From assembly GCA_900316305.1 (NCBI GenBank), contig ONCM01000003.1, forward strand, positions 1 through 64,000: DNA of 64,000 nt, given 5' to 3'. Made by a program: the position numbers and the translations under genes. A model generated the notes under the pieces. That model was not told the DNA's origin and did not search any database. It worked only from the letters and a program-made list of their open reading frames with translations. Source of the DNA: an uncultured Bacteroidales bacterium (lineage in GTDB: Bacteria; Bacteroidota; Bacteroidia; Bacteroidales; WCHB1-69). Below are positions 4,050-37,255 of the stretch, one piece after another. The number at the start of each line of letters is the position of its first letter. Position 1 is the first letter of the stretch.

Positions 4050-4070
4050 AGGAATGGTGTTTTTCTGTAT

Positions 4071-7202: not shown

Positions 7203-7211
7203 TACTTTTGC
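7203..7211 (+). promoter_or_regulatory. Promoter -7 box driving cobalamin riboswitch 1
   Basis: TACTTTTGC on the plus strand immediately before the riboswitch aptamer. Confidence 0.7.
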
Positions 7212-7212
7212 C

Positions 7213-7464
7213 GCCGCAAAGTGGTGAAGGATTTTCTTCGTAAAATCCTGAGAGGGAAACAGGTGTAAGTCCTGTACAGTACCCGCTGCTGTAAGTTTCA
7301 AGCCAAGAAACCGCACGTTGCCACTGTCGGAAGACGGGAAGGCGCGGTTTCAGAAACGAGTCAGAAAACCTGCCACGGCGCATTGTTATCGCTTCGGGAG
7401 GTAGGCGGATACAAAAGAGACCCTAATCGCGCTCTTCATTCCAACATTAACCGAAGCATTTTGT
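7213..7464 (+). ncRNA. Cobalamin riboswitch 1
   Basis: Contains the conserved aptamer core GAGGGAAACAGGTG...CCTGTACAGTACCCGCTGCTGTAAG and the B12 box AGTCAGAAAACCTGCC at 7359-7374. An AGGATTTT/AAAATCCT stem precedes the core. After the B12 box a GCTTCGG (7391-7397) / CCGAAGC (7451-7457) pairing can form the expression platform; the same platform occurs in riboswitch 2. It should repress the downstream BtuG-like gene when B12 is plentiful. Confidence 0.93.
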
Positions 7465-7486
7465 CAAACCCTAAATGCCGAGGATT

Positions 7487-8572
7487 ATGCATTTATGTAA
7501 CTTATTAAAAAAGAGTGTCTTATGGCTTCTTATTCTGCCAATTTTGGTCATTTCTTGCGTACCAAAACCGCCGCTACCTGATCCTGAGCCCATCCCTGAT
7601 ACATACGCGAACGGACTTTTCATTCTCAATGAAGGTCTTTTCCAACAGAATAACAGTACGTTATCATACTATAATTATAAGGATGGAACATTCACTGCGA
7701 ATATCTTTTTGGATGTCAATCATCGTGGTTTGGGCGATGTGGGCAACGATTTGCAGCGATATGGCAGCAAACTCTACATCGTGGTCAACAACTCCAATAT
7801 CGTGGAGGTGGTGGATGCAAAAACTGTCCAATCGTTGAAAACCATCAATTTGAACGGCAAACAGCCGCGCTATATCACCTTTTTGGACAATAAAGCCTAT
7901 ATTTCCTGCTTCGATGGCGATGTGGTGCGCATCGACACAGCTGCTTTAGAGGTGGAAGCCACCGTGCACACCGGTCCGAACCCCGACGGCATCTGCACCT
8001 GCAATGGCAAGATTTACGTCTCTAACTCCGGCGGCCTCAGTGCCCCGAACTACGGCAACACCGTTTCGGTAATCGATCCCGCCTCATTCACCGTCACCAA
8101 GGACATCACAGTGGCAATCAATCCCACCCGTATCAAATCTTACAACAACCGCTACGTCTATGTGGTCTCCAATGGCGATTACGGCACCGTGCCTTATACC
8201 TTCCAAAAGATTGATTGTCAGACTGATGAGGTGGTAAAAACATACAATCTCGAAGTCCTGAACTTTGAAATCCACCAAAACCTCGCCTACATCTACACTT
8301 ACAATTTCAACACCATGACTTCCGCATGGATCAGCGTGTTGGATTTGGAAACGGACGAAATCGTGAAGGAGCAGTTCATCAGCGACGGCACGCAGCTGAA
8401 GACCCCTTACGGCATCAAAGTGAACCCATTGAACGGCGATGTCTATATCACCGATGCGGGCACCTTCACCACCAATGGCGACATCTACTGCTTCGACAAA
8501 AACGGCAAGAAGAAATTCTCGTTTGAAGGCGGTTTGAATCCGTCGGCAATGGTGATTGACTTCGGCGAATAG
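7487..8572 (+). CDS. BtuG-like surface beta-propeller lipoprotein (B12 binding)
   Basis: 361 residues from the ATG at 7487 (an ATG at 7475 is also possible). A signal peptide ends in LVISC with the lipid-carrying Cys, followed by a Pro-rich linker. The rest is a seven-bladed YncE-type propeller: GLFILNEGLFQQNNSTLSYY, LYIVVNNSNIVEVVDAKT, PRYITFLDNKAYISCFDGDV, PDGICTCNGKIYVSNSGG, YGIKVNPLNGDVYITDAG. In Bacteroides, BtuG proteins of this type sit on the cell surface over BtuB and bind cobalamin very tightly. The riboswitch directly upstream supports this role. No btuB is adjacent, so its partner receptor must be elsewhere. Confidence 0.8.
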   Translation: MHLCNLLKKSVLWLLILPILVISCVPKPPLPDPEPIPDTYANGLFILNEGLFQQNNSTLSYYNYKDGTFTANIFLDVNHRGLGDVGNDLQRYGSKLYIVVNNSNIVEVVDAKTVQSLKTINLNGKQPRYITFLDNKAYISCFDGDVVRIDTAALEVEATVHTGPNPDGICTCNGKIYVSNSGGLSAPNYGNTVSVIDPASFTVTKDITVAINPTRIKSYNNRYVYVVSNGDYGTVPYTFQKIDCQTDEVVKTYNLEVLNFEIHQNLAYIYTYNFNTMTSAWISVLDLETDEIVKEQFISDGTQLKTPYGIKVNPLNGDVYITDAGTFTTNGDIYCFDKNGKKKFSFEGGLNPSAMVIDFGE

Positions 8573-22885: not shown

Positions 22886-22894
22886 TATTTTTGC
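22886..22894 (+). promoter_or_regulatory. Promoter -7 box driving cobalamin riboswitch 2
   Basis: TATTTTTGC on the plus strand directly before the aptamer. Confidence 0.7.
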
Positions 22895-22895
22895 A

Positions 22896-23120
22896 GCCGC
22901 AAAATGGTGAAGGGAAACAGGTGCGAATCCTGTACAGTACCCGCTGCTGTAAGTTCCGCGAAAGGAGCCGCAAAATGTCACTGTCGAAAGATGGGAAGAC
23001 GCCGCTTCAGGAACAAGTCAGAAAACCTGCCATTTATGCGTTGTTAATCGCTTCGGGAGGTAGGCGGATACAAAAGAGACCTTAATCACACTCTTTGTTT
23101 CTATTATTAACCGAAGCATT
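22896..23120 (+). ncRNA. Cobalamin riboswitch 2
   Basis: AGGGAAACAGGTGCGAATCC, then GTACAGTACCCGCTGCTGTAAG, and the B12 box AGTCAGAAAACCTGCC at 23016-23031. The expression platform repeats that of riboswitch 1: GCTTCGG (23050-23056) can pair with CCGAAGC (23111-23117), and GGAGGTAGGCGGATACAAAA between them is the same in both. It controls the T9SS protein at 23181. Confidence 0.93.
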
Positions 23121-23180
23121 TTGTCAAACTTAAATGCTAAGGATTACACGTATTTGGTATTTTTAATAAACAAAACAATT

Positions 23181-24458
23181 ATGAAGAAATTATTACTCTT
23201 TTTCGGTTTATTTTGCATGATAAACCTGACTTTTGCCCAACAGACGGTGATTCTGAATGGACATGGAAATCATGATGGTGCAGTCCGCGATGGCGATGAT
23301 CCCGTTGACGCATCCCTCCCCTTTAGCGACATCCTTTTCTGGGTGGGCAGCGGTTCCGACAGCGCTGAGTTCATCGTCAACTTTGCGCAACCTGACACCG
23401 CATTCGCATGGGGCTTCCTCTTCAACGGCAGCACCACCGCACAAGAGATGGTCAATGCCATCGCAGCCGCCGACCCCCGTTTCTGGTCCGAAGGCTCTCC
23501 CTCCTCTGGCGGTGACCTCCACTTCGTCCTCTCCAACGGCGACACCCTGGGACTTTCCCCCGTTGATCCGACTATGGGTTACAACTTCTGGTGGACCAAC
23601 CTCAACGGTGTTAGCGCAGGTGCCGGTGCAGCTAGCACACTCCATAACGGAGACATATTCAAATACGGTGACATGAATTCCGCCATCGGCTGGGATTTCC
23701 AGTATGGTTATTACATGGAAGAGGCATGGGTCAAGACTCCCACTGCTGTCGCGCCTCCTACAGATCCTCTTCCCGATGAGGCCACTATCGCCTTCAGCGA
23801 AATCCTCTACTGGGTGGGTGAAGGTTCCAACGAGGCCGTCATGGCCGTCAACTGGGCTGACACTGCTTTGGCATGGGGCTACCGCTGGAACGGCACTGCC
23901 ACCGTCGCTGACATGATAGCTGACATCGCCGCCGCCGACCCGCGCTTCAGCTACGAACTGGGCAGCTGGGGTCTCGACGACATCATCTTCGCTGTTGCCG
24001 AAGGCGACACCCTCCGCAAAGTTCCCTACAGTTATTGGGAAAGCAAGAACAATGGCTATACGGATATGGGTATGGGTCAGACCCTCGCCAACGGTGACTT
24101 CGAGAAGTGGGCCGAACCCGCCGCCGGCATCATCGCCGATAGCATGGAATACGATGGTTACTGGTACTACACCTACGTCTATCCGATGACCATCAATCCC
24201 GTCTCTGTGCCCGAGACAGGCTCAGGCATCGACAATCACGAGATATCCCGCATGTACGCGTATCCGAACCCGTGCACGAACACGCTCTACATCACCAACG
24301 AGAACGCCGAGCGCATCGAACTGTACAATGCTAACGGCAAACTGTTGGAGGCTGTCGAGAACCACGACACGCAAGTGACTCTGAATATGCAACAGTATCC
24401 TGCTGGCCTCTATCTGCTGAAAGTCGGCAATGACGTGCAGAAAATCTTGAAGAAATAA
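23181..24458 (+). CDS. B12-riboswitch-controlled T9SS surface protein with two repeat domains
   Basis: 425 residues from MKKLLLFFGLFCMINLTFAQ. After the signal peptide come two copies of a roughly 130-residue domain (about 45-195 and 205-340), each starting [FI]SEILYWVGEGSNEAVMAV-like, with AWGYRWNGTATVADM and IAAADPRF. The last 75 residues are a T9SS sorting domain: YAYPNPCTNTLYITNENAER, AERIELYNANGKLLEAV, QYPAGLYLLKVGNDVQKILKK. It should be exported and fixed to the cell surface. The riboswitch upstream points to corrinoid handling, but the repeat domain has no function I can name. The second repeat plus sorting domain (about 680 bp) is almost the same as the end of the 1752-residue neighbour. 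Confidence 0.85.
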   Translation: MKKLLLFFGLFCMINLTFAQQTVILNGHGNHDGAVRDGDDPVDASLPFSDILFWVGSGSDSAEFIVNFAQPDTAFAWGFLFNGSTTAQEMVNAIAAADPRFWSEGSPSSGGDLHFVLSNGDTLGLSPVDPTMGYNFWWTNLNGVSAGAGAASTLHNGDIFKYGDMNSAIGWDFQYGYYMEEAWVKTPTAVAPPTDPLPDEATIAFSEILYWVGEGSNEAVMAVNWADTALAWGYRWNGTATVADMIADIAAADPRFSYELGSWGLDDIIFAVAEGDTLRKVPYSYWESKNNGYTDMGMGQTLANGDFEKWAEPAAGIIADSMEYDGYWYYTYVYPMTINPVSVPETGSGIDNHEISRMYAYPNPCTNTLYITNENAERIELYNANGKLLEAVENHDTQVTLNMQQYPAGLYLLKVGNDVQKILKK

Positions 24459-24497
24459 CCCTTTTATATTAATGAGTAGCCTATCGGCTGAAATGGA

Positions 24498-24527
24498 AAC
24501 GGCCCCGCGTTTGCGAGGCCGTTTTTT
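24498..24527 (+). terminator. Hairpin terminator after the T9SS protein
   Basis: AACGGCCCCGC / GCGAGGCCGTT stem followed by TTTTTT; it also sits at the stop of the convergent small membrane protein gene. Near-identical hairpins follow the two later T9SS genes. Confidence 0.85.
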
Positions 24528-24823
24528 CATTCTTTCTTTTTCCCTTGACCCAATTCCCGGCGGTTTCGCCCGATATACAAAAAATAGAGCATCAAGTCGA
24601 TGGCCACCAACGTACCGTTAAAGATGTAGAGCCAGATGACAATGTCGTGGTTATACAACACCTTGTGGATGATGCCGAAGATGTACCCTAATACGATCAG
24701 GGACATGAAAAGAGGGCTTTTGCCAATCACCACCTTGGTGCGCAAGGATTTGGCAATGGAAATCGGCCAGCTGACCGTGAAACAAAGCAGGAAGAGAACT
24801 TCCCATATACTAAAATCTGTCAT
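24527..24823 (-). CDS. Small three-segment membrane protein
   Basis: 98 residues from MTDFSIWEVLFLLCFTVSWP; the longer frame is rejected because the promoter (24876-24884) is inside it. Three hydrophobic segments (about 8-22, 39-53, 61-83) with a charged C-terminal tail RNRRELGQGKKKE. The spacing (SWPISIAKSLRTK) recalls small SemiSWEET/PQ-loop-like proteins, but this is uncertain. Convergent with the T9SS gene, divergent from riboswitch 3. Confidence 0.6.
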   Translation of the reverse strand: MTDFSIWEVLFLLCFTVSWPISIAKSLRTKVVIGKSPLFMSLIVLGYIFGIIHKVLYNHDIVIWLYIFNGTLVAIDLMLYFLYIGRNRRELGQGKKKE

Positions 24824-24875
24824 AATTTTGATTATTAACAACTTATAAAACATTCGGATTCCCCCGAATGGGACT

Positions 24876-24884
24876 GCAAAAATA
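24876..24884 (-). promoter_or_regulatory. Promoter -7 box for the small membrane protein
   Basis: TATTTTTGC on the minus strand, 53 bp upstream of the start; a CATTCGG/CCGAATG hairpin (about 24851-24870) lies in its leader. Confidence 0.6.
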
Positions 24885-24896
24885 CAAAAAAAAGTG

Positions 24897-24905
24897 TATT
24901 TTTGC
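24897..24905 (+). promoter_or_regulatory. Promoter -7 box driving cobalamin riboswitch 3
   Basis: TATTTTTGC on the plus strand at the head of the aptamer. Confidence 0.7.
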
Positions 24906-25130
24906 CGCCGGTTTGGTCGCCCTGACGAAGGGCGCCAAGAGGGAAGCCGGTGCGAGTCCGGCGCAGTCCCGCTGCTGTAAGCTCCAACGAACTGAAAGCC
25001 CAATTTTAACGTCACTGTGTGCTGCCATAAGTACATGGGAAGACAGGGCCGACGGGGAGCAAGCCAGAATACCTGCCAAACCCTGAGAAATCGGTAACGC
25101 TTTCGAGGAAAAGCACCCCGAACAAGGACC
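24906..25130 (+). ncRNA. Cobalamin riboswitch 3
   Basis: GAGGGAAGCCGGTGCGAGTCCGG, then GCGCAGTCCCGCTGCTGTAAG, and the B12 box AGCCAGAATACCTGCC at 25062-25077. The peripheral arms and the region after the B12 box differ from riboswitches 1 and 2, so this copy has its own history; a GGTATTCATTACC hairpin lies near 25135-25150. It controls the 1752-residue protein. Confidence 0.93.
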
Positions 25131-25247
25131 CGTCAGGTATTCATTACCTCCCCTTTTGTGTGGTTCGAAGGTTCGCACGCGCCTGTTTCCCAAAAGTTTT
25201 TGCCGATATTGGACAGAAATGGTCAAACATTTTTAAACAATATCATT

Positions 25248-28200
25248 ATGGTAAAAAAACTACTTGTATTCATCATGGCTCTGGGGCTTGCATTAAACGC
25301 CTCAGCCCAATTGACAACCATCGACCCGAATGATGTCCAATTCTGGACCGGCACCGGCAGCAACAGCACGGTCGTCGCCATCGGTTGGGACGATGATTCA
25401 GCTCCTTACACGCCCACCGTGGTGATCTGGGGCGTGCGCTGGGAAGGCAGTATCTACCTTGTCAACGCATTGGACACCATCGCCGCCTACGACAGTCGCT
25501 TTTCCTACGTGATGGGCGGCAGTGGATTCCTGACATCGCTCTATTACAACGACCCGGACGAAGGCCTTGTGCTGACCCCTTCGGGAGGATTTAACTGCAA
25601 CAATTACGGCGGAGCTTATGGCTCAACTACACTCAATAGCACGCACTTGCGGATTACCGAATCCACATGCAGCAACTACAACTTTGCCGGTGTGACCAAC
25701 ATTGTCTATGCTGTCGACCCCAACGCCGTAACCTCCTGTCCCAAGGCGCAAAGCGTTAGCATTTCAGATCTTACCGCCTATAGCGCCACGGTAAACATCA
25801 CCGACACCACCAATTTGAATAACTATACAGTAATGCTTTTTGAAGGCGACTCGCTGATTGACAGCGTCGTCATCTACACCCAGACCATCTCCTACTCTAC
25901 CCTTACCGCCAACACCGGCTACACGGTGAAGGTCTTCTCCAACTGCTCCGACGGCACGCAGACCACAGCCCGCAGCGCCAGCTTCCGCACTCCGTGCGTA
26001 GAAGTGGCTCACACCGAACTTCCGTGGACGGAAGATTTTCAGTCTTACAATGGCCTGTCTTATGCGTCCGCGTCGGTCTCCTTCGCCAGCCAAGTATTCT
26101 GCTGGGATCTGATTAACCCCTACAGCACCTCCGATCCCTATATCAACAACTCTTCCTCGGTCAATGTGAGCGGCGGCAAATGCCTCTACGTGAGCAGCCG
26201 TCCCACAAGTCCGACCATTCTGGTGCTGCCGCCGTTTGAGGACACCCCCAACCAGTTGCGCCTCCAATTCGACGTGCTCTCCACCTACGGACACGGCTTC
26301 GAAGCGGGTGTCATCACCGATGTGACGGATGAAACCTCCTTCACCCCCATCGCTACCTGTCTGCCAACCAACAGCGGTTGGAACCACTTTGAGGTTTCCT
26401 TCGCTGGCTTCACCTCCGGCAGAATCGCCCTCCGTTCCAACGACAACGGTCCCGCCTATCTCGACAATATGATGGTGGATGAAGTACCTTCCTGCGTGAA
26501 ACCTTCTCAGGTGATTGTCTCTAACATTGATGTCTATTCAGCTGACATCACGATCACCGATCCCAATAATACTAATCATTATATGGTATATGCCGCCGAA
26601 GATAGCGTAGAAATCTATAGTGACAGCTACACTCTCACCAACCTGCAGCCCAACACGCTCTATGTGGTGGGTGTGCGCACCATCTGCAGCGACAACACCA
26701 TTACAAACGCTACCGAAACCTCCTTCCGCACCGGCTGTGGCCCGATTGCCATCCCCTATCATGAGGATTTCAGCCAGTTTGCGGATTTGTCCAACGGCTA
26801 CGGCTACGCAGTGACCGACAGCACCCTACCCTGCTGGGGCTTCTTCAAATCACGTGCGCTCGACCGTCTGGAGCTCTTCCCCTACACGTCCACTTACGGC
26901 TATGGCGAGGATGGCTACACCTTGCGCATCTATTCCAACAATTCCAACTCTATTGATATTCTGATGCTTCCCGAACTTGCTCAAGCAACCAATACGTTGG
27001 AAATCAGCTTTATGACCCGTCCTTCCGAAACCGGCTCTTTTGGCGGTATTTTGGAAGTGGGCTATATGACCGATCCCACCGACACAGCCAGTTTTGTCGC
27101 GGTGACCAGCTATAGCTGTGGCCAGTTCACCAACGGCTACGACCTGCGTGCCGTCACCTTGAGCAATGCACCCGCCAATGCCCGCATCGCGATACGCACA
27201 ATCCCCACTGGCGGTTCCGCCAAATCTTGGTACATCGATGACCTCGACGTTCACGACATGCCCGCCTGCGCCCGCGCCAACGGCATCAGCGTGGATAATA
27301 TCACCACCGACGGCTTCACTCTTCACGTGGACGACCCCACCTTGGTGAACAACTATCGTTACTATATCAGCTCAGAAAATAGCGTTGATAGCGCCGACTT
27401 CTACGACACAGTGGTTATCGTCAACGGTTTGGCCGCTTCTACGGACTTCGAACTCACTGTAGTCTCTATCTGTCCCGATGGTACTTTCACTTTGCCTCAC
27501 ACCATTTCGGTCAGCACCCTCTGTGCGCCCGTGCCCGATGTTCCCTTCGTGGAAAACTTCGAAAGCTGGACGGCCACTCAGTCGGAGGGCATGAACCGTT
27601 GCTGGAACCGTCTGTACTGTAACTCATCCAGCAGCTTGGTTACCAACAACTATCCTTATTGTGCCAGTGGTAGTGGCAATGCCTACAACGGCTTCAAGTC
27701 ACTCAAGATGTACTCCAAAGGAACTACCAGTGCCATCAAAGAATACTCCGTGGCTTATCTGCCTGAGTTTACGGCTAATATGAACACCCTGAAAGTAAGT
27801 TTCTTCTACAAATATGGTGGCAGCACCACCAATATGAACAAGGTGCGTATCGCTGTTGGTATCAGCGAAGACGTGACCGACACCACCACTTTCACCCGTT
27901 TGGCCACCCTCACCCCGACCGTCATCGGTTGGAACGAGTTTGAGGTGGAATTCAGCGGCTACACCGGCAACGGCAACCGCATCACCATCATGCAGACCAG
28001 CACCGGCACCACCGCCATCACCAGCTACATCGACAGCGTGGTGGTGGACACCGTCAGCAGCTGCAACCGTCCTACCACTTTTGAAGTGTCCAACATCTCC
28101 GCTTACGGCGCTACCCTTACCTGGACCGATCCCGGCACGGCAGACTCCTACATCGTGCGCTGGACCGACGGCACTACGACCGACAGCGTCATCGTCACCA

Positions 28201-30506
28201 ACGACACCCTCTACGAACTCAGTAGTCTGTTGCCCAGCACCACCTATTCTGTGGATATCCGCAGTATCTGTTGGGGCGAACCCACCAATGCCCGCACGCT
28301 GACCTTCGCCACTTCCTGTGCTCCCATGCCGCTGCCGTGGAGCATGGACTTCGAAAACATCACGAATATTAACCAACTCTCTTCCTGCTGGAACAGATAT
28401 AGCGGTATTTATGTTGACTCTACCAACAGTGCTACGCTGACCTCCACTTCCAGCGGTTGGGCACGTTCCAACACTGCTTTTGACGGATCGTCACATGTGA
28501 AAGTCAACATCTATGGAACTTCATGCAAGTATTGGTTAGTGACTCCTGAAATTGATCTCACTGCGAATGCCGAGCTGACCTTCGACTATATGTTCACCGC
28601 TTACAACAATGCCAACGCTCCTCAAACAGGATCCGGCCTTGATGATGACCGTTTCATCGTGCTCGCCACCACCGACAACGGCACCAGCTGGACTCCTATT
28701 GCCAAGTGGGGTAACGACACCGTCAACCGCGATGATTACTACCTTGCCGATGTTACCAACACCGTATCCAATATCACCCTCTCTTTGGCTGATTTCACCG
28801 GACAAGTTGTTCGACTGGCCTTCTACGGCGAAAGTACTGTCGGCGGCACCGACAACGATTTCCGCATCGACAATATCGTAGTGGCATTGGCAGCCGACAC
28901 TACCTCCACTCCCGACACTATCCCCACGCCTCCTCCTACCCCTGAAGATGCCACCATCTCCGCTAATGACATTATCTACTGGATTGGCAGTGGTGACGAA
29001 AGCGCCATCTTCGTACTCAACATTGACACTACTTCAGTGGCTTGGGGTTATCACTTTGATGCGGATGATGAACCCACGATTGACGATATGATCGCCGACA
29101 TTGATGCCGCTGACCCGCGTTTGGCCTACACTGTCAGCTATGAAACATACGAATACACTTTCTATTATGTCAATCACCCGCTCAAACTCATCGGCGACAA
29201 CTTCCGTTTCAAAGTGAATGGCTCGTTGGCTTCCGCCCTTGAAGAGTTTGAAGACTATGACCTTGCCGACAGCATGATCGTTGTGGTCAGCACGTTGGCA
29301 GGTGATGTCTGGAACACGCCTATTGTTCCTGCAACCGTGGCTACCATGCCGGTAGATGCTACCATCTCCGCTGAGGAAATCCTCTATTGGGTCGGTGAAG
29401 GCAGCAACGAGGCCGTCATCGCTATCAACTGGGGCGTTCCCGACACTGCACTGGCTTGGGGTTTGCGTTTCAACGGCAATCTGACCGTGACCACCGCTTT
29501 GCAGGCGCTCGTTGCCGGTGAAAGCCGTCTCACGACCAACACCGCCATGTCCACCTTCGACTACAATGATGGGACGGTCAACCTCAGCTTCCAGAATAAT
29601 CCTAACAACTTCATGCAGTTCATCCTCAACGGCAACTCACAGGCTGGTCTGTCCAGTCCGGTGACCGACGGTGCTTTCCTCAAGGTAGGTGAATCCGCTT
29701 ACGGTATCGGTTACGACTCCACCGCATACGCCGGTATGTGGTATCCGTCGGGCGTGGCATGGCCGACCACCATTCATCCTGTTACAGCTCCCGACACCAC
29801 ACCTATAATCCCCGTCCCCGAAGAGGCCACTATCGCTTTCAGCGAAATCCTCTACTGGGTGGGTGAAGGTTCCAACGAGGCCGTCATGGCTGTCAACTGG
29901 GCCGACACTGCTTTGGCTTGGGGTTACCGCTGGAACGGCACTGCCACTGTCGCCGACATGATGGCCGATATCGCCGCCGCCGACCCGCGCTTCAGCTACG
30001 AACTGGGCAGCTGGGGTCTCGACGACATCCTCTTCATTGTTGCCGAAGGCGACACCCTCCGCAAGGTTCCCTACAGCTATTGGGAAAGCAAGAACAATGG
30101 CTATATGGATATGGGTATGGATCAGACCCTCGCTAACGGTGACTTCGAGAAATGGGCCGAACCCGCTGCCGGCGTTATTGTCGATAGCATGGAATACGAG
30201 GGTTACTGGTACTACACCTACGTCTATCCGATGACCATCAATCCTGTTTCTGTGCCCGACACCATCCACGACGGCATCGATGACCACGAGATGTCCCGCG
30301 TGTACGCCTACCCGAACCCGTGCACGAACACGCTTTACATCACCAACGAGAACGCCGAGCGCATCGAACTGTACAATGCTAACGGCAAACTGCTGGAGGC
30401 CATCGAAAACCGCGACACGCAAGTGACTCTGAATATGCAACAGTATCCTGCTGGCCTCTATCTGCTGAAAGTCGGCAACGGCGTGCAGAAGATTCTGAAG
30501 AAATAA
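25248..30506 (+). CDS. Giant T9SS surface protein with four repeat domains and Fn3/jelly-roll modules
   Basis: 1752 residues from MVKKLLVFIMALGLALNASA (the frame opens at 25158, inside the leader). Order: signal; repeat domain A (about 22-164, DVQFWTGTGSNSTVVAIGW); four modules, each an Fn3-like domain ending FRTPC/FRTGC/STLC/ATSC followed or preceded by a jelly-roll unit with LPWTEDFQ..., ENFESW..., MDFENI... and a closing YIDS/LDNM strand (about 164-1215); a Pro/Thr linker; repeat domains B, C and D (about 1235-1365, 1367-1520, 1525-1668); T9SS sorting domain ending VQKILKK. It should extend far from the cell surface. The riboswitch upstream implies induction when B12 is scarce. Domain D and the tail nearly match the 425-residue neighbour. 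Confidence 0.85.
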   Translation: MVKKLLVFIMALGLALNASAQLTTIDPNDVQFWTGTGSNSTVVAIGWDDDSAPYTPTVVIWGVRWEGSIYLVNALDTIAAYDSRFSYVMGGSGFLTSLYYNDPDEGLVLTPSGGFNCNNYGGAYGSTTLNSTHLRITESTCSNYNFAGVTNIVYAVDPNAVTSCPKAQSVSISDLTAYSATVNITDTTNLNNYTVMLFEGDSLIDSVVIYTQTISYSTLTANTGYTVKVFSNCSDGTQTTARSASFRTPCVEVAHTELPWTEDFQSYNGLSYASASVSFASQVFCWDLINPYSTSDPYINNSSSVNVSGGKCLYVSSRPTSPTILVLPPFEDTPNQLRLQFDVLSTYGHGFEAGVITDVTDETSFTPIATCLPTNSGWNHFEVSFAGFTSGRIALRSNDNGPAYLDNMMVDEVPSCVKPSQVIVSNIDVYSADITITDPNNTNHYMVYAAEDSVEIYSDSYTLTNLQPNTLYVVGVRTICSDNTITNATETSFRTGCGPIAIPYHEDFSQFADLSNGYGYAVTDSTLPCWGFFKSRALDRLELFPYTSTYGYGEDGYTLRIYSNNSNSIDILMLPELAQATNTLEISFMTRPSETGSFGGILEVGYMTDPTDTASFVAVTSYSCGQFTNGYDLRAVTLSNAPANARIAIRTIPTGGSAKSWYIDDLDVHDMPACARANGISVDNITTDGFTLHVDDPTLVNNYRYYISSENSVDSADFYDTVVIVNGLAASTDFELTVVSICPDGTFTLPHTISVSTLCAPVPDVPFVENFESWTATQSEGMNRCWNRLYCNSSSSLVTNNYPYCASGSGNAYNGFKSLKMYSKGTTSAIKEYSVAYLPEFTANMNTLKVSFFYKYGGSTTNMNKVRIAVGISEDVTDTTTFTRLATLTPTVIGWNEFEVEFSGYTGNGNRITIMQTSTGTTAITSYIDSVVVDTVSSCNRPTTFEVSNISAYGATLTWTDPGTADSYIVRWTDGTTTDSVIVTNDTLYELSSLLPSTTYSVDIRSICWGEPTNARTLTFATSCAPMPLPWSMDFENITNINQLSSCWNRYSGIYVDSTNSATLTSTSSGWARSNTAFDGSSHVKVNIYGTSCKYWLVTPEIDLTANAELTFDYMFTAYNNANAPQTGSGLDDDRFIVLATTDNGTSWTPIAKWGNDTVNRDDYYLADVTNTVSNITLSLADFTGQVVRLAFYGESTVGGTDNDFRIDNIVVALAADTTSTPDTIPTPPPTPEDATISANDIIYWIGSGDESAIFVLNIDTTSVAWGYHFDADDEPTIDDMIADIDAADPRLAYTVSYETYEYTFYYVNHPLKLIGDNFRFKVNGSLASALEEFEDYDLADSMIVVVSTLAGDVWNTPIVPATVATMPVDATISAEEILYWVGEGSNEAVIAINWGVPDTALAWGLRFNGNLTVTTALQALVAGESRLTTNTAMSTFDYNDGTVNLSFQNNPNNFMQFILNGNSQAGLSSPVTDGAFLKVGESAYGIGYDSTAYAGMWYPSGVAWPTTIHPVTAPDTTPIIPVPEEATIAFSEILYWVGEGSNEAVMAVNWADTALAWGYRWNGTATVADMMADIAAADPRFSYELGSWGLDDILFIVAEGDTLRKVPYSYWESKNNGYMDMGMDQTLANGDFEKWAEPAAGVIVDSMEYEGYWYYTYVYPMTINPVSVPDTIHDGIDDHEMSRVYAYPNPCTNTLYITNENAERIELYNANGKLLEAIENRDTQVTLNMQQYPAGLYLLKVGNGVQKILKK

Positions 30507-30560
30507 CCCCTTTTATATTAATGAGTTGCCGGTCTTTGGGATGATGTAACCGGTTAAAGA

Positions 30561-30594
30561 AGGAAACGGCTCCGCAATGTCGGGGCTGTTTCCT
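30561..30594 (+). terminator. Hairpin after the giant T9SS gene
   Basis: AGGAAACGGCTCC / GGGGCTGTTTCCT stem with one G-T pair, followed by a short T-rich run; weaker than its two sister terminators. Confidence 0.65.
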
Positions 30595-30657
30595 GTTTGA
30601 AAACTATCAAATACAAAATTACGCGTCACTATAATCCTAATATAACCGAAAAAATCC

Positions 30658-30723
30658 TATTTTTGCCACTACAAAGTGGTGTGGATATGCATTTATGATA
30701 TTTTTTAACAAACAAAATAAATT
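30658..30723 (+). promoter_or_regulatory. Promoter and short leader lacking a riboswitch aptamer
   Basis: TATTTTTGC at 30658-30666, then CAAAGTGGTG as at the start of riboswitch 1, joined directly to GGATATGCATTTATG, which matches the sequence just after riboswitch 1 (GGATTATGCATTTATG). Between those two marks about 230 bp of aptamer and platform are absent. The leader is only about 50 nt. Confidence 0.65.
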
Positions 30724-31782
30724 ATGAAGAAATTATTACTCTTTTTCGGTTTATTCTGCATGATAAACCTGATTTTTGCCCAAGAGATGGATCATCTAAT
30801 TGGCCATGATTCCGTTGTCACTACTTATCCTGATTCCATCTTGAATACGATTTTGGATTCCGAACCTGGTCCTTTCTGCGGCCCTGTCGGCTCTGAAGGC
30901 TGCAACGCCATCGCCGCCAATGACAACCAAATTGTGGCTTGGGCTACTGGAGTGGAACTTACCCGTGGACCGTATATGATCACCAACCCGGAAGGTCCGT
31001 ATGCCTACTTCGGCGGTGACACCAACGCCATCGGACCGGCTACCATGGACAACACCATGGATGCCGTCAGTCTCGGCGACGGCGGTTCCGCGCTGGTCAC
31101 CTTCGACCGTCCCATCAGTAACGGCGAAGGTCCTGACTTTGCCGTATTCGAGAACTCCTTCAACGACACCTTCCTCGAACTGGCCTTTGTGGAGGTAAGC
31201 TCCGACGGCGTGCATTTCGTGCGCTTCCCAGCCACCTCACTCACCCCGACCGACGAGCAGGTGAGCGGTGCTGTAGGCGGCGTGGATGCCACCAACCTCA
31301 ACAACCTGGCCGGCAAGTTCCGCATCGGCTACGGCACCCCGTTTGATCTCGAAGAGCTGCGCGACAGTGCCAACCTCAACATTGACAGCATCGTCTATGT
31401 GCGTATCATCGATGTGGTGGGCACCATCGACCCGCAGTACGCCACCTACGACGCTTTCGGACACATCGTCAACGACCCTTGGCCGACCAACTTCTGGAGC
31501 TGCGGCTACGACCTCACTGGCGTGGGCGTCATTCACCAAAAGACCGTCGGCATTGGCAACCACGAAATGGCTCGCGTGTATGCCTATCCGAACCCCTGCA
31601 ATAGCACGCTCTACATCATCAACGAGAACGCCGAACGCATCGAACTCTACAACACCAATGGCCAACTACTTGAAACAATAAATAACGGCGACACACAAGT
31701 GACTCTCAACATGCAACAATATCCCTCTGGTCTTTATCTGCTGAAAGTCGGCAACGGCGTACAGAAGATTCTGAAGAAATAA
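30724..31782 (+). CDS. T9SS-exported cell-surface protein of the cobalamin-associated type
   Basis: 352 residues. Signal MKKLLLFFGLFCMINLIFAQ is the same as in the 425-residue protein but for one residue. The middle (about 40-270) has GDGGSALVTFDRPISNGEGP, DFAVFENSFNDTFLELAFVE, VSSDGVHFVRFPATSLTPT, NNLAGKFRIGYGTPFDLEEL and IVYVRIIDVVGTIDPQYATY, a secreted family that I recall seeing in cobalamin uptake loci of Bacteroidetes and other phyla. A T9SS sorting domain closes it (YAYPNPCNSTLYI...VQKILKK). Likely a surface protein working with the two upstream proteins; no enzyme motif seen. Confidence 0.8.
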   Translation: MKKLLLFFGLFCMINLIFAQEMDHLIGHDSVVTTYPDSILNTILDSEPGPFCGPVGSEGCNAIAANDNQIVAWATGVELTRGPYMITNPEGPYAYFGGDTNAIGPATMDNTMDAVSLGDGGSALVTFDRPISNGEGPDFAVFENSFNDTFLELAFVEVSSDGVHFVRFPATSLTPTDEQVSGAVGGVDATNLNNLAGKFRIGYGTPFDLEELRDSANLNIDSIVYVRIIDVVGTIDPQYATYDAFGHIVNDPWPTNFWSCGYDLTGVGVIHQKTVGIGNHEMARVYAYPNPCNSTLYIINENAERIELYNTNGQLLETINNGDTQVTLNMQQYPSGLYLLKVGNGVQKILKK

Positions 31783-31787
31783 ATAGG

Positions 31788-31820
31788 AAACGGCCCCGCA
31801 ATCGCGAGGCCGTTTTTTTT
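31788..31820 (+). terminator. Hairpin terminator after the cell-surface protein gene
   Basis: AAACGGCC-CCGC / GCGA-GGCCGTTT stem followed by eight Ts. Confidence 0.88.
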
Positions 31821-32712: not shown

Positions 32713-33867
32713 ATGACGCACAAACGATATTTTCTCTGCATTTTCTTGATGTTGAATGCGGCTGCCATCTTTGCGCAAACGCCCATTCAAGTTGCTGATT
32801 TGTCTTTTAAGTTGAATGGCAACACAGCAGAAGAGTTCTATTACAGTTTCGCTGAAGGGGACATAATGGTTGTGGATTTTGAACTCGCCAAGGGGAAGGG
32901 AGTGCAATTTGAAATTGTGGAACTACCTAACCAGATTAAAACAAGCCAGTTCACAGCGAAAATGACCGATTATCGACTAAATGTTTTCTCTACAAAGGTC
33001 TATTTGTTCAGGATAACCAACGGATTGGGCAACAAAATGTGTTCTCTTCACATTAAACGTATTCCCAAATCGCAAGAAACACTGAAATTCAATACGGGAT
33101 GGGAATGGAAAACACTTTATGACACTACATATAATCACTATTCGGAAGATTCTCTTGTCGGACATGATACGGTACATTACATGGAGACAATAAAAGAAGT
33201 GGACTCAAGAGAGGTGTCAGAAGAAATGTTGTTCGATCGTAAAGAGGAAATACCTTCTATTGCCAAAATGTTTTTGGACGAAAATCCTCGTAAATGCATT
33301 ACATTCCATTTACCTCAAAACATAGAAAATACCTATTTGAGGAAGACTGTGATTGGTTGGGGCTTTTGGATATGTGTGGGAGATCATTCAAGCAGTTGGT
33401 GGAGCAAAAATAAAAATTTAATGATTAAAGGGGCTTCTACTATTGCGGGAACAACAATGAGCCCTTTGGGTGCTTTCGTCGCAGGAGAAATTACAAATTT
33501 ACTAATTCCAGACAAAGGCGCAGTGGATAATGTTATATGGGCTGTTATTTCTAATTGGAACGACAGAAATGCATTTGTAAATGGAGAACGTGCATATTGT
33601 ATGCAAACTGGAAATGGTCCAGGTGCATGGGGAAAATTTTTAGATGCAAAGGATACCCAAGGTACATATCACATCTGTTTACGAAATGACAATACTATAG
33701 GAAAAATAAGGGTGAACGTGAAAGTATCTGTTCTTGTGGAAACCATTACCTATAAAGATGTAGATTATCCTCGGACACGGATAGTTCCTCAATATGTAAA
33801 AGTACCAAAAGTCCGCAGGAATATTACCTCCCGTCAGATCAGAGTTCCAGTGAATGAAGGTAGATAA
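32713..33867 (+). CDS. Secreted protein of unknown function
   Basis: 384 residues. Signal peptide (CIFLMLNAAAIFAQ). About 25-110 strand-rich, resembling a pre-peptidase C-terminal-like beta domain (YYSFAEGDIMVVDFELAKG). Residues about 190-300 include FHLPQNIENTYLRKTVIGWG, a Gly/Ala-rich segment AGTTMSPLGAFVAGEITNLL that could insert in membranes, and IWAVISNWNDRNAFV. The C-terminus is basic with no T9SS tail. Stops 13 bp before the protease start, so part of its operon. I do not recognise the family. Confidence 0.6.
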   Translation: MTHKRYFLCIFLMLNAAAIFAQTPIQVADLSFKLNGNTAEEFYYSFAEGDIMVVDFELAKGKGVQFEIVELPNQIKTSQFTAKMTDYRLNVFSTKVYLFRITNGLGNKMCSLHIKRIPKSQETLKFNTGWEWKTLYDTTYNHYSEDSLVGHDTVHYMETIKEVDSREVSEEMLFDRKEEIPSIAKMFLDENPRKCITFHLPQNIENTYLRKTVIGWGFWICVGDHSSSWWSKNKNLMIKGASTIAGTTMSPLGAFVAGEITNLLIPDKGAVDNVIWAVISNWNDRNAFVNGERAYCMQTGNGPGAWGKFLDAKDTQGTYHICLRNDNTIGKIRVNVKVSVLVETITYKDVDYPRTRIVPQYVKVPKVRRNITSRQIRVPVNEGR

Positions 33868-33880
33868 TAATACAATCATC

Positions 33881-36800
33881 ATGAAAAAGATCACGTTATT
33901 GTTAGCATTGATTATGTGCGTCAATATGGTCTTCTCTAATCCTGTTGACACAATTACGGCAAAACGAGTAGCCATCAATTTCTGGAAACAGAACAATGCA
34001 GGGCCAACTGTAAATGGTAAAACTTTGCGTTTCCAACGAGAGGTCCCGGATTTTCGTCTTCTGCCTGATACCCTTTTCTCGGGTTTTTACATCTTTAATG
34101 CTGTAAATGGAAAAGGATTTGTCATTGTTTCGGCTAATGATAATGCAATCCCCATATTAGGATATTCAATGGAAAACTCTTTCCAAATTGAAAATATGCC
34201 TCCTAATCTTAAATTTTGGTTGGAAGGCTACGAACAAGAAATCCAAAATGCAGATTATGTCAGATGCTCTAATGAAATACGTAGTGATTGGGGAATGTTG
34301 TTAGCTGGCGAGCCTTTGCCTGTAAAAAGTACTACCAATGTTACTCCTCTATTAACTACACATTGGGACCAGGGTTGGCCGTATAATTTATCTTGTCCAT
34401 ACGATTATGATGCTGAAGATAATACCATGACAGGATGTGTGGCAACAGCCATGGCACAGGTGCTGAAATATTGGGAATATCCTCAAATTGGAACAGGTTC
34501 TCATACTTACATAGACCCCAATTACGGCATGCAGAGCGTGGATTTTGAGACAGGAATTGCTTGGAATGAGATGTTGAATGACTATTCTACATCTACTTCA
34601 TATACTCTCATGCAAGCAAGTGCTATTTCATCATTGATGTATATGTGCGGAGTAAGTGTGGATATGAATTATGGTATTTATGCTAGTGGAATATCAAATT
34701 TTATTAACGAATACGGATTACTACCGTTACCTTGTCCTGAAACGGCGTTAAAAACATATTTTAACTATAGTGACAATCTTGAGGGAATATCTAAATCTGA
34801 TTTCACATCTGCTCAATGGATAAGTATATTAAAAAATGAGTTGGATTCAGACAGAGTGATTCTCTATACAGGACATGACGCGAACAACACAAGTGCACAT
34901 GCTTTTGTTTGTGATGGCTATTCTAATAATAATAATTTTCATTTTAATTGGGGATGGAGTGGTTATTGTGACGGATATTACTCTATTAACAATCTTGCTC
35001 CTGGATCTGGAGGATCAGGTAGTGGTAACGGTAATTATACTTATGGTCAACAAGCTATCATTCACATTACACCATCCAATCAGGTAGTTCATCCTAATTA
35101 CGATCTTGTGATGAATAGCACGTTGACCACATCTGACACTAGTTATTTGTTTGGCCCCAATCATCCAATTTCGATTAATTGTGCAGTAGCAAACACAGGC
35201 AATGCGACTTTTAATGGGTATCTTGTTGCATTAGTGTCGGATTTAAACGGAAATATTGTAGCTGAAATCACATCTTCCTATACCACAATCTCTCCAAATC
35301 ATTATGTGAATAAAAGCTTTACGGTTCAAGGAGGGTTGCCTTTAGGGCCTGGAAGATATTTTGCTATTATCACTTCTGCAACAAATCTTAATGATCCTGC
35401 TACATCGCGAATCATCAGAGATAATTTGTCCAATATCAATTTTGCTCAGTTCAAGGTGACCTATGAAGCGGACATTGAAACCTTTTCTGAGTTTGAGCTG
35501 TCGGAATACATGATATATACAGGACAATCGCTTTCAGTAAACGTGGATATTGCAAATTTCGGTTCCGATTTTTCTGGTGATTTTTCTGTTGCGTTACTCT
35601 CTATGACTGGTTCGTATGTTCAAACTATTCAACAACATACTCTTACAATTCCTCTTGAGAGTATGACACATTATACTAACGGAATCGACTTTACGGGTAC
35701 TATTACTGCTTCTGCCGGTGATTACTTTCTGACATTACGGTATAGACCGCAGGGTTCTTCCAATTGGTATTATGCGGGCAGTTATTTTTATCAGAATCCA
35801 GTCAGAATTACTGTTTACGCTCAGCCCGTGGCGGATATGTATGAAGCGAATAATACGGCTGCAACCGCATATACTTTATCTCCTGTTTTTACAGATAACA
35901 TGGCCAACGTAAATACCAATGGAGCAAACATCCATTCTATCACCGATGTTGATTATTATAAAATTATCCTTCCTTCTGGATATTCTTATGATATAGTTCC
36001 AATCCTGCAAGACGTGTATTATAATGATGACATATCCTATTCAGTCGATGCAAAGTTTTATTTTTCTGTCAACAATACGACATCTTGGCAAGGACCGTTT
36101 GATTACGATGCTAATATTCTAACATATATAGCTAATTATTGTGGGACTACGATGAGTGACGGAGGAACTATATATTTTAAAGTGTTACCCACATCCCAAG
36201 GAGACATAGGTACTTATTCACTGCATGTTGTATTGAATCGTTCAATTAGCCCTGACCAGTACGAGCCAAACAGTACAGCATCAACAGCTTACAATCTTGG
36301 CACTGTCAACTCCAGTAGTGTAAATTACAATGTGAACGCCAACTTCCATATCACCACTGATGCAGATTACTACAAGATTAACCTTCCGTCAGGTTATTCC
36401 TATACCATAAACGCAAATATACTTAACAGTTACAATAACACCTCCTATACAGCAGATGCAAAATTCGCGACATCCCAAGATGGTAGCACTTGGTCTTCCA
36501 ACTATGGGAATGCCATGTCAGCAATGACAATGAGTGATGGTGGAACACTTTATTTTCGGGTTTTACCTTATACTGACCATGAAATAGGAACATATCAATT
36601 GCAAATTTCCATCACTCGGACAGGCGGTGTTGAACCTGACCAATACGAGCCGAACAATACAGTCAACACTTCCTATTTACTGGCTACAATAGACGAACCG
36701 ACATCTTCCATTGTTGCCAATGCGTCGTTCCATACCACATCGGATGAAGATTACTACAAAATTGATTTCCCGGCAGATTATAATTACACTATTGAAGTTG

Positions 36801-37255
36801 TGATGTTCGACTGCACAAATGACCCTAACTGTTCTGTGGATGCGAAAATCGCAGTCTCTGACGACGGAAACAACTGGTCTTCGTTCTATGGGACTTCCAT
36901 ACCACCAATGACCATTGAAGATGGAGGAAGACTTTATTACCATGTCGCTCCTCAACAAACAGCTGCGACAGGGACCTACCAATTACATTTCTCAATTTCA
37001 CGAACAACGGGAATCCAAGACAATGAGTTTGCCTCCATCATGATCTACCCAAATCCTGTAACCGACCGTTTGGTCATCAGTGGCACAAACGAGATCCAGT
37101 TGGACGGTATAGAAATATATGACATCACAGGTCGCCTCATACAAACGGTTCAAAAAGATTATCGGGTGATAAATACCTCTCAATTATCGAAAGGCACCTA
37201 TATGCTGAGACTGTTTACTTCTGAAGGAGAAGTCGTTAGAAAGTTCTTGAAATAG
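33881..37255 (+). CDS. C10-family (streptopain-like) cysteine protease with T9SS domain
   Basis: 1124 residues from MKKITLLLALIMCVNMVFSN. A propeptide (about 22-145) with FNAVNGKGFVIVSANDNAIP is followed by the catalytic domain: Cys186 in MTGCVATAMAQVLKYW and His340 in TSAHAFVCDGY, then FHFNWGWSGYCDGYY; spacing is close to that of streptococcal SpeB. Beyond about 400 come CARDB-like domains (to about 650), three PPC-type beta domains each starting D-x-Y-E-P/A-N-N/S-T (about 655, 790, 920), and a T9SS sorting domain (YPNPVTDRLVISG...VVRKFLK). It should be a secreted, surface-bound zymogen. AT-rich codon use suggests transfer. Confidence 0.9.
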   Translation: MKKITLLLALIMCVNMVFSNPVDTITAKRVAINFWKQNNAGPTVNGKTLRFQREVPDFRLLPDTLFSGFYIFNAVNGKGFVIVSANDNAIPILGYSMENSFQIENMPPNLKFWLEGYEQEIQNADYVRCSNEIRSDWGMLLAGEPLPVKSTTNVTPLLTTHWDQGWPYNLSCPYDYDAEDNTMTGCVATAMAQVLKYWEYPQIGTGSHTYIDPNYGMQSVDFETGIAWNEMLNDYSTSTSYTLMQASAISSLMYMCGVSVDMNYGIYASGISNFINEYGLLPLPCPETALKTYFNYSDNLEGISKSDFTSAQWISILKNELDSDRVILYTGHDANNTSAHAFVCDGYSNNNNFHFNWGWSGYCDGYYSINNLAPGSGGSGSGNGNYTYGQQAIIHITPSNQVVHPNYDLVMNSTLTTSDTSYLFGPNHPISINCAVANTGNATFNGYLVALVSDLNGNIVAEITSSYTTISPNHYVNKSFTVQGGLPLGPGRYFAIITSATNLNDPATSRIIRDNLSNINFAQFKVTYEADIETFSEFELSEYMIYTGQSLSVNVDIANFGSDFSGDFSVALLSMTGSYVQTIQQHTLTIPLESMTHYTNGIDFTGTITASAGDYFLTLRYRPQGSSNWYYAGSYFYQNPVRITVYAQPVADMYEANNTAATAYTLSPVFTDNMANVNTNGANIHSITDVDYYKIILPSGYSYDIVPILQDVYYNDDISYSVDAKFYFSVNNTTSWQGPFDYDANILTYIANYCGTTMSDGGTIYFKVLPTSQGDIGTYSLHVVLNRSISPDQYEPNSTASTAYNLGTVNSSSVNYNVNANFHITTDADYYKINLPSGYSYTINANILNSYNNTSYTADAKFATSQDGSTWSSNYGNAMSAMTMSDGGTLYFRVLPYTDHEIGTYQLQISITRTGGVEPDQYEPNNTVNTSYLLATIDEPTSSIVANASFHTTSDEDYYKIDFPADYNYTIEVVMFDCTNDPNCSVDAKIAVSDDGNNWSSFYGTSIPPMTIEDGGRLYYHVAPQQTAATGTYQLHFSISRTTGIQDNEFASIMIYPNPVTDRLVISGTNEIQLDGIEIYDITGRLIQTVQKDYRVINTSQLSKGTYMLRLFTSEGEVVRKFLK

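What the first reader, a model, noticed from the sequence alone, without database searches (positions are those of the whole stretch)
22886..31820. B12-riboswitch set of T9SS-exported repeat proteins, possibly a new surface corrinoid-capture system
Two cobalamin riboswitches each drive one T9SS-exported protein (425 and 1752 residues), and a third T9SS protein follows. The first two share a roughly 130-residue domain (SEILYWVGEGSN...AWGYRWNGTATV...AADPRF), once or more per protein, six copies in all. With the BtuG-like lipoprotein under a third riboswitch at 7.2 kb, four surface proteins are tied to B12. Known gut systems use lipoproteins (BtuG, BtuH) over BtuB; here the proteins are attached by T9SS and one is very large. 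I infer that the repeat domain binds corrinoids or a B12 carrier.
Basis: partly seen in the sequence, partly recalled or inferred. Interest (0 to 1): 0.8.

Follow-up and report, generated by a model that had tools for sequence, protein, structure and literature searches.

The report
Surface vitamin B12 capture protein set
A gut Bacteroidales bacterium encodes B12-switch-controlled surface proteins whose repeated domain is predicted to fold like the B12-holding part of our own intrinsic factor, so it probably grabs vitamin B12 outside the cell; this has not been tested here.

Summary
Three cobalamin riboswitches precede a BtuG-like lipoprotein and two T9SS-tailed proteins (425 and 1752 aa), which carry six copies (2+4) of one domain. 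A third T9SS protein follows without its own riboswitch.
No Pfam or NCBIfam model scores the window copies. The domain occurs in 31 of 247 genomes of the order (one later dropped) and in other phyla. Of 80 loci fetched by protein pattern, 74 have a cobalamin riboswitch upstream (one below cut-off; about 0.3 expected).
An AlphaFold2 model (pLDDT 95.8) retrieves intrinsic factor, haptocorrin or transcobalamin in 13 of the 19 best Foldseek hits, but with E-values of only 0.035-0.33. Pfam's transcobalamin-type DUF4430 matches 8 of 37 and 11 of 93 domain copies, never a window copy. The third protein is probably a distant BtuH relative.
Best reading: a B12-repressed, T9SS-displayed corrinoid-capture set built of transcobalamin-like and BtuH-like modules. 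Binding is inferred, not shown. It is a new variant of a known kind: transcobalamin-like bacterial surface domains were predicted to scavenge B12 in 2007, and BtuG, BtuH and BtuJ are known binders.

The parts
7205..7391 (+). Cobalamin riboswitch (RF00174) before the BtuG-like gene
   Evidence: 95.8 bits, gathering 31.5
7475..8572 (+). BtuG-like lipoprotein, 365 aa (DUF5074 beta-propeller; lipobox VISC by eye)
   Evidence: Pfam PF16819 4.1e-18; PDB 8blw chain B 6.1e-81, whose entry is titled BtuB1 with BtuG1 from B. theta (title)
22888..23048 (+). Cobalamin riboswitch before P1
   Evidence: 91.3 bits
23181..24458 (+). P1, 425-aa T9SS-tailed protein with two transcobalamin-like repeat domains
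23307..23759 (+). Repeat domain, P1 copy 1
   Evidence: profile match E 8.6e-59, model 1-143
23778..24206 (+). Repeat domain, P1 copy 2 (the copy folded, as 23778-24218)
   Evidence: profile match E 2.1e-70; AlphaFold2 pLDDT 95.8, pTM 0.89
24261..24455 (+). P1 T9SS type A sorting tail (residues 361-425)
   Evidence: PF18962 2.9e-12, TIGR04183 5.1e-11
24897..25094 (+). Cobalamin riboswitch before P2
   Evidence: 110.8 bits
25248..30506 (+). P2, 1752-aa T9SS-tailed protein: repeat domain, fn3 and choice-of-anchor-J modules, three repeat domains, sorting tail
25317..25697 (+). Repeat domain, P2 copy 1
   Evidence: E 1.6e-43
28947..29312 (+). Repeat domain, P2 copy 2
   Evidence: E 9.8e-44
29355..29786 (+). 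Repeat domain, P2 copy 3
   Evidence: E 7.1e-61
29823..30251 (+). Repeat domain, P2 copy 4 (with the following tail 92% identical in DNA to P1's 3' part over 684 aligned bases)
   Evidence: E 4.7e-71; blastn
30309..30503 (+). P2 T9SS sorting tail (residues 1688-1752)
   Evidence: PF18962 4.9e-11
30724..31782 (+). P3, 352-aa T9SS-tailed, probably distantly BtuH-like protein; no riboswitch of its own here
   Evidence: profile-profile with the BtuH family Prob 87, E 3.9e-6 over 36 columns; Foldseek ranks 2-3 are 7biz and 8blw; PF18962 3.7e-12
31585..31779 (+). P3 T9SS sorting tail (residues 288-352)
   Evidence: PF18962 3.7e-12

Best explanation
The locus encodes a B12-repressed surface corrinoid-capture set. 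When intracellular B12 is low the riboswitches let P1, P2 and the BtuG-like lipoprotein be made (inferred from the riboswitch class; B. thetaiotaomicron btu promoters were nearly shut off by B12 in reporter tests, PMC12751083 section 5). P1 and P2 pass the outer membrane by T9SS and are attached by the PorU sortase (signal and sortase shown; attachment inferred). Their repeat domain is a divergent transcobalamin/intrinsic-factor-type beta-grasp (SLBB, DUF4430-like) module that holds a corrinoid, several per chain (fold predicted; binding inferred). P3 is probably a distantly BtuH-like module with a T9SS tail that also binds corrinoid (inferred). Captured B12 is then passed to BtuG and BtuB (inferred; the btuB-like gene is on another contig).
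For: Riboswitch linkage: 31 of 33 repeat-domain genes in 29 other genomes of the order lie downstream of one on the same strand. In 80 loci fetched by protein pattern alone, 71 by position plus L125, L134 and L150 by direct scan make 74 of 80; one (L109) scores only 27 bits, below cut-off. About 0.3 expected by chance (genome size taken as 3.5 Mb). Fold: pLDDT 95.8; 13 of the 19 best PDB matches are intrinsic factor, haptocorrin or transcobalamin, Foldseek probability 0.72-0.99. Sequence: DUF4430 matches 8 of 37 (best 9.8e-10) and 11 of 93 members (best 1e-5); over 31 whole genomes chosen for having the repeat, its 8 best hits (E up to 0.0011, in four genomes) all fall on repeat copies. DUF4430 is at the C-terminus of transcobalamins (PMC4350170, passage). 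Context: 22 of 32 fetched loci hold a BtuB-like receptor (the query's own locus included); the repeat is fused to a DUF5074 propeller in L057 and to the P3 domain in L041, L046, L047 and in 12 proteins of L073-L152. P3-BtuH. PorU in the own genome 1188 bits; CbiL only 20 bits against a cut-off of 163; BtuB-like gene E 8.9e-132 at C54.
Against: No binding or expression data. No Foldseek match is below E 0.01; the carriers lie at 0.035-0.33 with TM-scores 0.37-0.50 on the query, and the best single hit (3u7z, E 0.011) is described only as a putative metal binding protein. DUF4430 reaches no window copy and, in the whole-genome run, no repeat copy in 27 of the 31 genomes; its other 16 hits (E 0.0036 and above) lie elsewhere. 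In mammalian carriers the beta domain works with an alpha/alpha toroid (PMC1796856), for which no model was hit in P1 or P2. Sequence profiles of the repeat find no plausible PDB relative. The own btuB-like gene lies on another contig with no riboswitch found there. Six of 80 loci have no upstream riboswitch seen, two of them in genomes where none was found.
Confidence: 0.74

Rival explanations
1. The repeat domain is part of the B12 regulon but does not bind corrinoid. It holds another partner, such as BtuG/BtuB, a vesicle component or a B12-carrier protein of another organism, and organises the uptake complex.
For: BtuL and BtuK2 of B. theta are encoded in its B12 uptake operons, yet no cobalamin binding was found for them (PMC12751083, section 6), so regulation alone does not prove binding. 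Beta-grasp domains also serve as protein-binding modules (general knowledge).
Against: The fold search brings up B12 carriers ahead of most generic beta-grasp proteins, and DUF4430 lands on a minority of relatives. Many relatives are short one-copy proteins, some without a BtuG or BtuB found beside them.
Confidence: 0.17
2. P1 and P2 are adhesins that dock to surfaces or to B12-producing cells under B12 starvation; the repeat binds a glycan or protein there.
For: P2 carries fn3 and choice-of-anchor-J modules. L057's 1242-aa relative carries BspA-type leucine-rich repeats and an Ig module.
Against: 79 of 82 repeat proteins in L073-L152 carry one to three copies, and several are little more than the repeat and an anchor; adhesin modules were searched for in only a few. 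The fold search lists no lectin among the 50 rows shown.
Confidence: 0.06
3. The riboswitch linkage is an accident of genome position or shared descent in one clade.
For: 15 of the 80 loci bear Chryseobacterium titles, so loci are not independent.
Against: The linkage recurs in records titled Planctomycetota, Armatimonadetes/Chthonomonas, Kiritimatiellia, Fibrimonadaceae and Deltaproteobacteria, with different anchors; most of these are MAGs.
Confidence: 0.02

Closest known systems
Transcobalamin / intrinsic factor / haptocorrin C-terminal beta-grasp domain (SLBB superfamily, transcobalamin-like clade; Pfam DUF4430)
   Same: Predicted beta-grasp fold; 13 of the 19 best solved matches; DUF4430 detects some relatives; surface-type sorting signals; B12 context.
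   Different: No alpha/alpha toroid model hit; window copies fall below DUF4430 detection; conserved N-terminal YWVGxGSN and WGYRWDG segments; often several copies per chain; T9SS, lipobox or PEP-CTERM-like signals where the 2007 paper names Gram-positive anchors; riboswitch control, a word absent from that paper's text.
BtuH (B. thetaiotaomicron BT_1956; 7biz) and BtuGH
   Same: P3's family aligns to the BtuH family around the SLG-GG...I-N--G-DF---N-F core, and 7biz and 8blw are its second and third fold matches.
   Different: T9SS tail rather than lipoprotein; only 36 aligned columns; often fused to the repeat domain in relatives.
BtuG (BtuG1/BtuGH of B. theta, 8blw)
   Same: P4 is a riboswitch-preceded DUF5074 propeller lipoprotein, 6.1e-81 to 8blw.
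   Different: No btuB beside it in the window.
BtuJ / DUF4465 family
   Same: B12-operon surface B12 binders, 38% with C-terminal extracellular targeting motifs (PMC12751083).
   Different: Augmented beta-jellyroll; no detectable sequence relation to the repeat.
BtuK and BtuL (B. theta)
   Same: Surface proteins of B12 uptake operons of partly known role.
   Different: Counterparts in a near relative read, by eye, as PKD plus propeller and as a long repeat protein; no relation of the repeat to BtuK1 or BtuL counterparts (BtuK2 not compared).

Membership tests
[quoted passage not shown]
   AlphaFold2 pLDDT 95.8; 13 of 19 best Foldseek PDB hits are B12 carriers, at E 0.035-0.33, so a weak-to-moderate fold match; which part of each carrier aligned is not shown in the output.
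Transcobalamin-like SLBB clade / DUF4430 | Sequence match to PF14478 above 23.8 bits | tested here: not met
   Window copies: no match. Relatives: 8 of 37 and 11 of 93 match at the loose E used; of the 7 shown singly, 4 are above cut-off. So I claim 'works and folds like', not membership of PF14478, for the window copies.
Transcobalamin-like SLBB clade / DUF4430 | Beta-hairpin insert after the helix | tested here: inconclusive
   Strands 57-62 and 65-72 follow helix 43-53 in the model, as an insert would; strand pairing was not inspected.
Transcobalamin-like SLBB clade / DUF4430 | Corrinoid binding | not testable with these tools
   needs purified protein
BtuH | Homology to the B12-binding domain of BtuH2 | tested here: inconclusive
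   Prob 87, E 3.9e-6 over 36 columns between P3 family and BtuH family; 7biz rank 2, prob 1.00, E 2.1e-3; searches of the PDB with P3 alone or an 8-sequence profile do not find it.
BtuH | Lipoprotein anchoring | tested here: not met
   P3 has a T9SS sorting tail.
BtuG | DUF5074-type propeller lipoprotein behind a corrinoid riboswitch | tested here: met
BtuJ / DUF4465 | DUF4465 sequence match | tested here: not met
   DUF4465 is in no list returned for P1, P2 or the repeat sets; profile comparison with the protein in BtuJ1's place in a near relative Prob 0.1
T9SS cargo | Type A C-terminal sorting domain and a PorU sortase in the genome | tested here: met
B12 regulon | Cobalamin riboswitch upstream on the same strand | tested here: met
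   P1, P2, P4; not P3 here

The most novel reading that the evidence does not exclude
The repeat defines an undescribed family of riboswitch-controlled bacterial surface B12 binders, divergent relatives of the intrinsic-factor beta domain, that work without the alpha toroid. They are strung in arrays of up to five per chain, often fused to BtuH-like or BtuG-like binders, so that cell surfaces act as multivalent corrinoid sponges. The family is used by Bacteroidota, Planctomycetota, Armatimonadota and others with three different anchoring systems.
Probability: 0.62. Interest if true: 0.82.

Novelty: new variant of a known kind. Interest (0 to 1): 0.74.

Why it matters
It would add a widespread class to the few known bacterial surface B12 binders, link gut-bacterial B12 capture to the fold that animals use in intrinsic factor, and give a testable model of multivalent vitamin capture. 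It also turns a domain that current family models mostly miss into a genome-readable marker of corrinoid scavenging in lineages such as rumen Bacteroidales and Planctomycetota. It raises a clear question, whether a lone beta-grasp can hold corrinoid without the toroid, which single-domain assays would answer.

Tried and rejected
Is the repeat BtuJ, BtuK, BtuL or BtuH under another name? Rejected as far as tested: counterparts were read from G326, whose BtuG1 is 88% identical to the B. theta sequence, and profile comparisons with the BtuH1, BtuK1, BtuL and BtuJ1 counterparts gave Prob 0.1 each (BtuK2 and BtuJ2 not compared). Gene identity there rests on gene order against PMC12751083 and on reading by eye, not on B. 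theta itself.

Is window 11504-13639 (-), a TonB receptor, the local BtuB? Not supported: its best NCBIfam models are siderophore and haem types, with TonB-B12 sixth, none near its cut-off, and it scores 49.5 bits with the BtuB profile against 439.7 for C54.

Direct PDB sequence searches with the repeat gave nothing useful; beta-lactamase hits at E 0.45 were treated as chance. VIA-align was unavailable.

Rows dropped: the G093 hit (E 0.009) was left out of the gene count because its domain score was 13.6 bits. For A6, 139 domain hits were cut to 97 non-redundant, of which 87 plus 6 window copies were aligned. Of 248 confirmed pattern matches only the best 80 loci were returned. The L041-L072 and L073-L152 sets share at least ten genomes, so their counts must not be added. 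Riboswitch positions in 59 of the 80 loci rest on coordinate matching; 21 were rescanned directly. Of the 14 rescanned loci that were among the 71, 13 were confirmed (L102 and L121 as the related AdoCbl-II class) and L109 was not at the gathering score. Three placings by my script were on the wrong contig: L116 and L142 (none found; neither was counted) and L125 (the true ones lie at 56-240 and 3900-4103). The anchor classes come from rough patterns of my own (15 of 82 proteins 'other'); the PEP-CTERM and lipobox motifs are recalled, no family search was run for them.

Literature: the listings, in the held open-access library, showed no paper that describes this repeat family; subscription papers and preprints are not held, and listings were not opened beyond these papers: abstract/outline, sections 5 and 6 and passages of PMC12751083; abstract/outline, section 11 part 1 and section 16 of PMC13398666; passages of PMC8941943, PMC6143338 and PMC4350170; passages and section 7 part 1 of PMC1796856.
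Full report
What is there. The window is part of contig C38 of a 3.28-Mb genome in 99 contigs, 97% complete. By P3 identity its nearest named relatives in the set compared are ruminant-gut Bacteroidales records, L150 (yak abomasum, 87%) and L148 (reindeer, 73%). Three full-length cobalamin riboswitches lie on the + strand at 7205-7391, 22888-23048 and 24897-25094. The first precedes a 365-aa BtuG-like lipoprotein. The second precedes P1 (425 aa) and the third P2 (1752 aa); P3 (352 aa) follows P2 after 217 nt with no riboswitch. P1, P2 and P3 all end in T9SS type A sorting tails. The genome's fourth cobalamin riboswitch precedes a gene that reads as an anaerobic (class III) ribonucleotide reductase (read from the sequence by me, no family search run).

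The repeat. Six copies, two in P1 and four in P2, and no others found in the genome. P1's second copy and P2's last copy, tail included, are 92% identical in DNA over 684 aligned bases, a recent duplication or conversion. P2 places one copy at its N-terminus and three near its C-terminus, around two fn3 and four choice-of-anchor-J stretches. Neither Pfam nor NCBIfam scores the repeat in P1 or P2 at E up to 1.

Where else it occurs. In 247 genomes drawn from the order, 31 match, own genome included; one of these (G093) was later dropped. A scan of 84,980 species genomes with the pattern [LMY][AV]WGY[RK][WF][DN]G gave 249 matches, 248 confirmed, of which the best 80 became loci. Titles include Chryseobacterium, Weeksella, Crocinitomix, Porphyromonas, Dysgonomonas, Parabacteroides faecalis, Bacteroides pyogenes, Planctomycetales bacterium ZRK34 (complete genome), Phycisphaerae, Armatimonadetes, Chthonomonas, Kiritimatiellia, a Fibrimonadaceae MAG and Desulfosarcina cetonica. 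MAG titles may be wrong; L134, titled Ruminococcus flavefaciens, looks Bacteroidales by its T9SS-like tail and BtuH neighbour. The repeat is rare in Bacteroides itself: 2 of 80 genomes of that genus.

Riboswitch linkage. In the order-level set, 31 of 33 repeat-domain genes (29 genomes) have a cobalamin riboswitch upstream on the same strand in the fetched stretch; the two exceptions lie in genomes where no cobalamin riboswitch was found. Twelve of the 31 genomes searched have just one such riboswitch, and in all twelve it is the one at the repeat gene. In the 80 named loci, position matching gave 71; direct scans added L125, L134 and L150, so 74 of 80. One of these (L109, 27 bits) is below the family cut-off, and two (L102, L121) score best as the related AdoCbl-II class. 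The six without are L093 and L095 (none found in the genome), L116, L129 (its riboswitch lies downstream of the matched gene but upstream of a second repeat gene), L142 and L151 (short contigs). About 0.3 loci would be expected by chance. The search used protein only, so the linkage is not built in; loci within a genus are not independent.

Neighbours and fusions. In 9 of 32 fetched loci (L051, L052, L054, L059, L060, L063, L067, L069, L070) the order is riboswitch, repeat protein, P3-like protein, BtuB-like TonB receptor, BtuG-like propeller. For L051 the receptor's best NCBIfam match is TIGR01779 TonB-B12, though at 99 bits against a cut-off of 600. A BtuB-like receptor is present in 22 of 32 loci (the query's own locus included). 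The repeat is fused to a DUF5074 propeller in L057 and to the P3 domain in L041, L046, L047 and in 12 proteins of L073-L152, with 2 to 5 repeats each. Fifteen loci of that set carry a BtuH-family gene at E below 1e-20. Of 82 repeat proteins in L073-L152, rough patterns put 48 with a T9SS-like tail, 12 with a PEP-CTERM-like tail (in records titled Planctomycetota, Phycisphaerae, Armatimonadetes/Chthonomonas, Desulfosarcina and one unnamed bacterium), 7 with a lipobox and 15 unclassed. One domain with three kinds of sorting signal argues for a surface role.

Fold. The repeat was folded with 93 sequences: pLDDT 95.8, pTM 0.89. Foldseek against the PDB gives no match at E 0.001 or below. The best hit is 3u7z (E 0.011). 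Of the first 19 hits, 13 are chains of intrinsic factor, haptocorrin or transcobalamin (E 0.035-0.33); the other six are 3u7z, SAMP1 (two chains), a molybdopterin synthase chain and two TFIID chains. Pfam DUF4430 matches 8 of 37 relatives (best 9.8e-10) and 11 of 93 in a second, overlapping set (best 1e-5), ahead of any other family (1 and 2 members). Run over 31 whole genomes chosen for having the repeat, its eight best hits, E up to 0.0011, were all repeat copies, in four genomes of two genera; the other 16 hits, from E 0.0036 (an unrelated-looking protein in the own genome) upwards, lie elsewhere, so the model misses the repeat in the other 27 genomes, the own genome included. [quoted passage not shown] Whether that paper's planctomycete members belong to the present family I could not tell.

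P3. Its family (26 sequences) aligns with the BtuH family (16 sequences) at Prob 87, E 3.9e-6, over 36 columns; the BtuH family is anchored by 7biz (2.2e-84) and 8blw (1e-107). The P3 model is middling (pLDDT 77.8); its Foldseek ranks 2 and 3 are 7biz and 8blw, after a chain of a phage portal-tail complex, and many carbohydrate-binding and F5/8-type domains follow. So P3 is probably, not certainly, a BtuH-type binder. In the 50 rows shown for each model, the repeat brings up no BtuH entry and P3 no transcobalamin-type entry, a mutual control.

Mechanism, with status. Riboswitch present (shown); B12 represses expression (inferred from class). T9SS tail and PorU sortase (shown); N-terminal signal peptide by eye; surface attachment (inferred). 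Repeat is a beta-grasp of the transcobalamin kind (predicted). Repeat binds corrinoid (inferred, about 0.75). Several repeats per chain raise local capacity (inferred). Transfer to BtuG and BtuB (inferred; the own btuB-like gene is at C54:8777-10816). The organism probably cannot make corrin rings de novo: only a 20-bit match to CbiL against a cut-off of 163 (one marker only).

Verdict. It is a new variant of a known kind: known regulation, known anchoring and a known superfamily, but a family that I found described in none of the listings seen, in multi-copy T9SS form. The missing step is a binding assay.

Noticed in passing
G000:C62:43034-43213 (-), L005:14855-16945 (-): The genome's fourth cobalamin riboswitch precedes a gene that reads as an anaerobic class III ribonucleotide reductase, a B12-independent enzyme, with an activase-like gene next (by eye).
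   Followed up: partly
L129:11407-11491 and 11582-11823: In Desulfosarcina cetonica a c-di-GMP-I riboswitch sits 90 bases upstream of a cobalamin riboswitch on the same strand, ahead of a repeat-domain gene at 12844: a possible tandem two-signal control.
   Followed up: no
L121:702-783, 3965-4044, 8690-8831: A Fibrimonadaceae MAG contig holds two AdoCbl-II riboswitches and one RF00174 match within about 8 kb; the first precedes a repeat domain at 1286.
   Followed up: no
window 33854-37255 (+): A 1133-aa protein with Spi inhibitor, C10 peptidase and T9SS tail follows a weakly GOLD-like and a weakly Lcl_C-like protein; no B12 link seen.
   Followed up: no
window 11504-13639 (-): A TonB-dependent receptor closest to siderophore or haem types, not the genome's best BtuB match.
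   Followed up: partly
L057:6204-9932: A 1242-aa riboswitch-preceded protein joins the repeat domain to an Ig-like module and a long BspA-type leucine-rich repeat.
   Followed up: no
window 24527-25036 (-), between P1 and P2: A minus-strand frame whose later part reads as a small hydrophobic protein separates the two riboswitch units.
   Followed up: no
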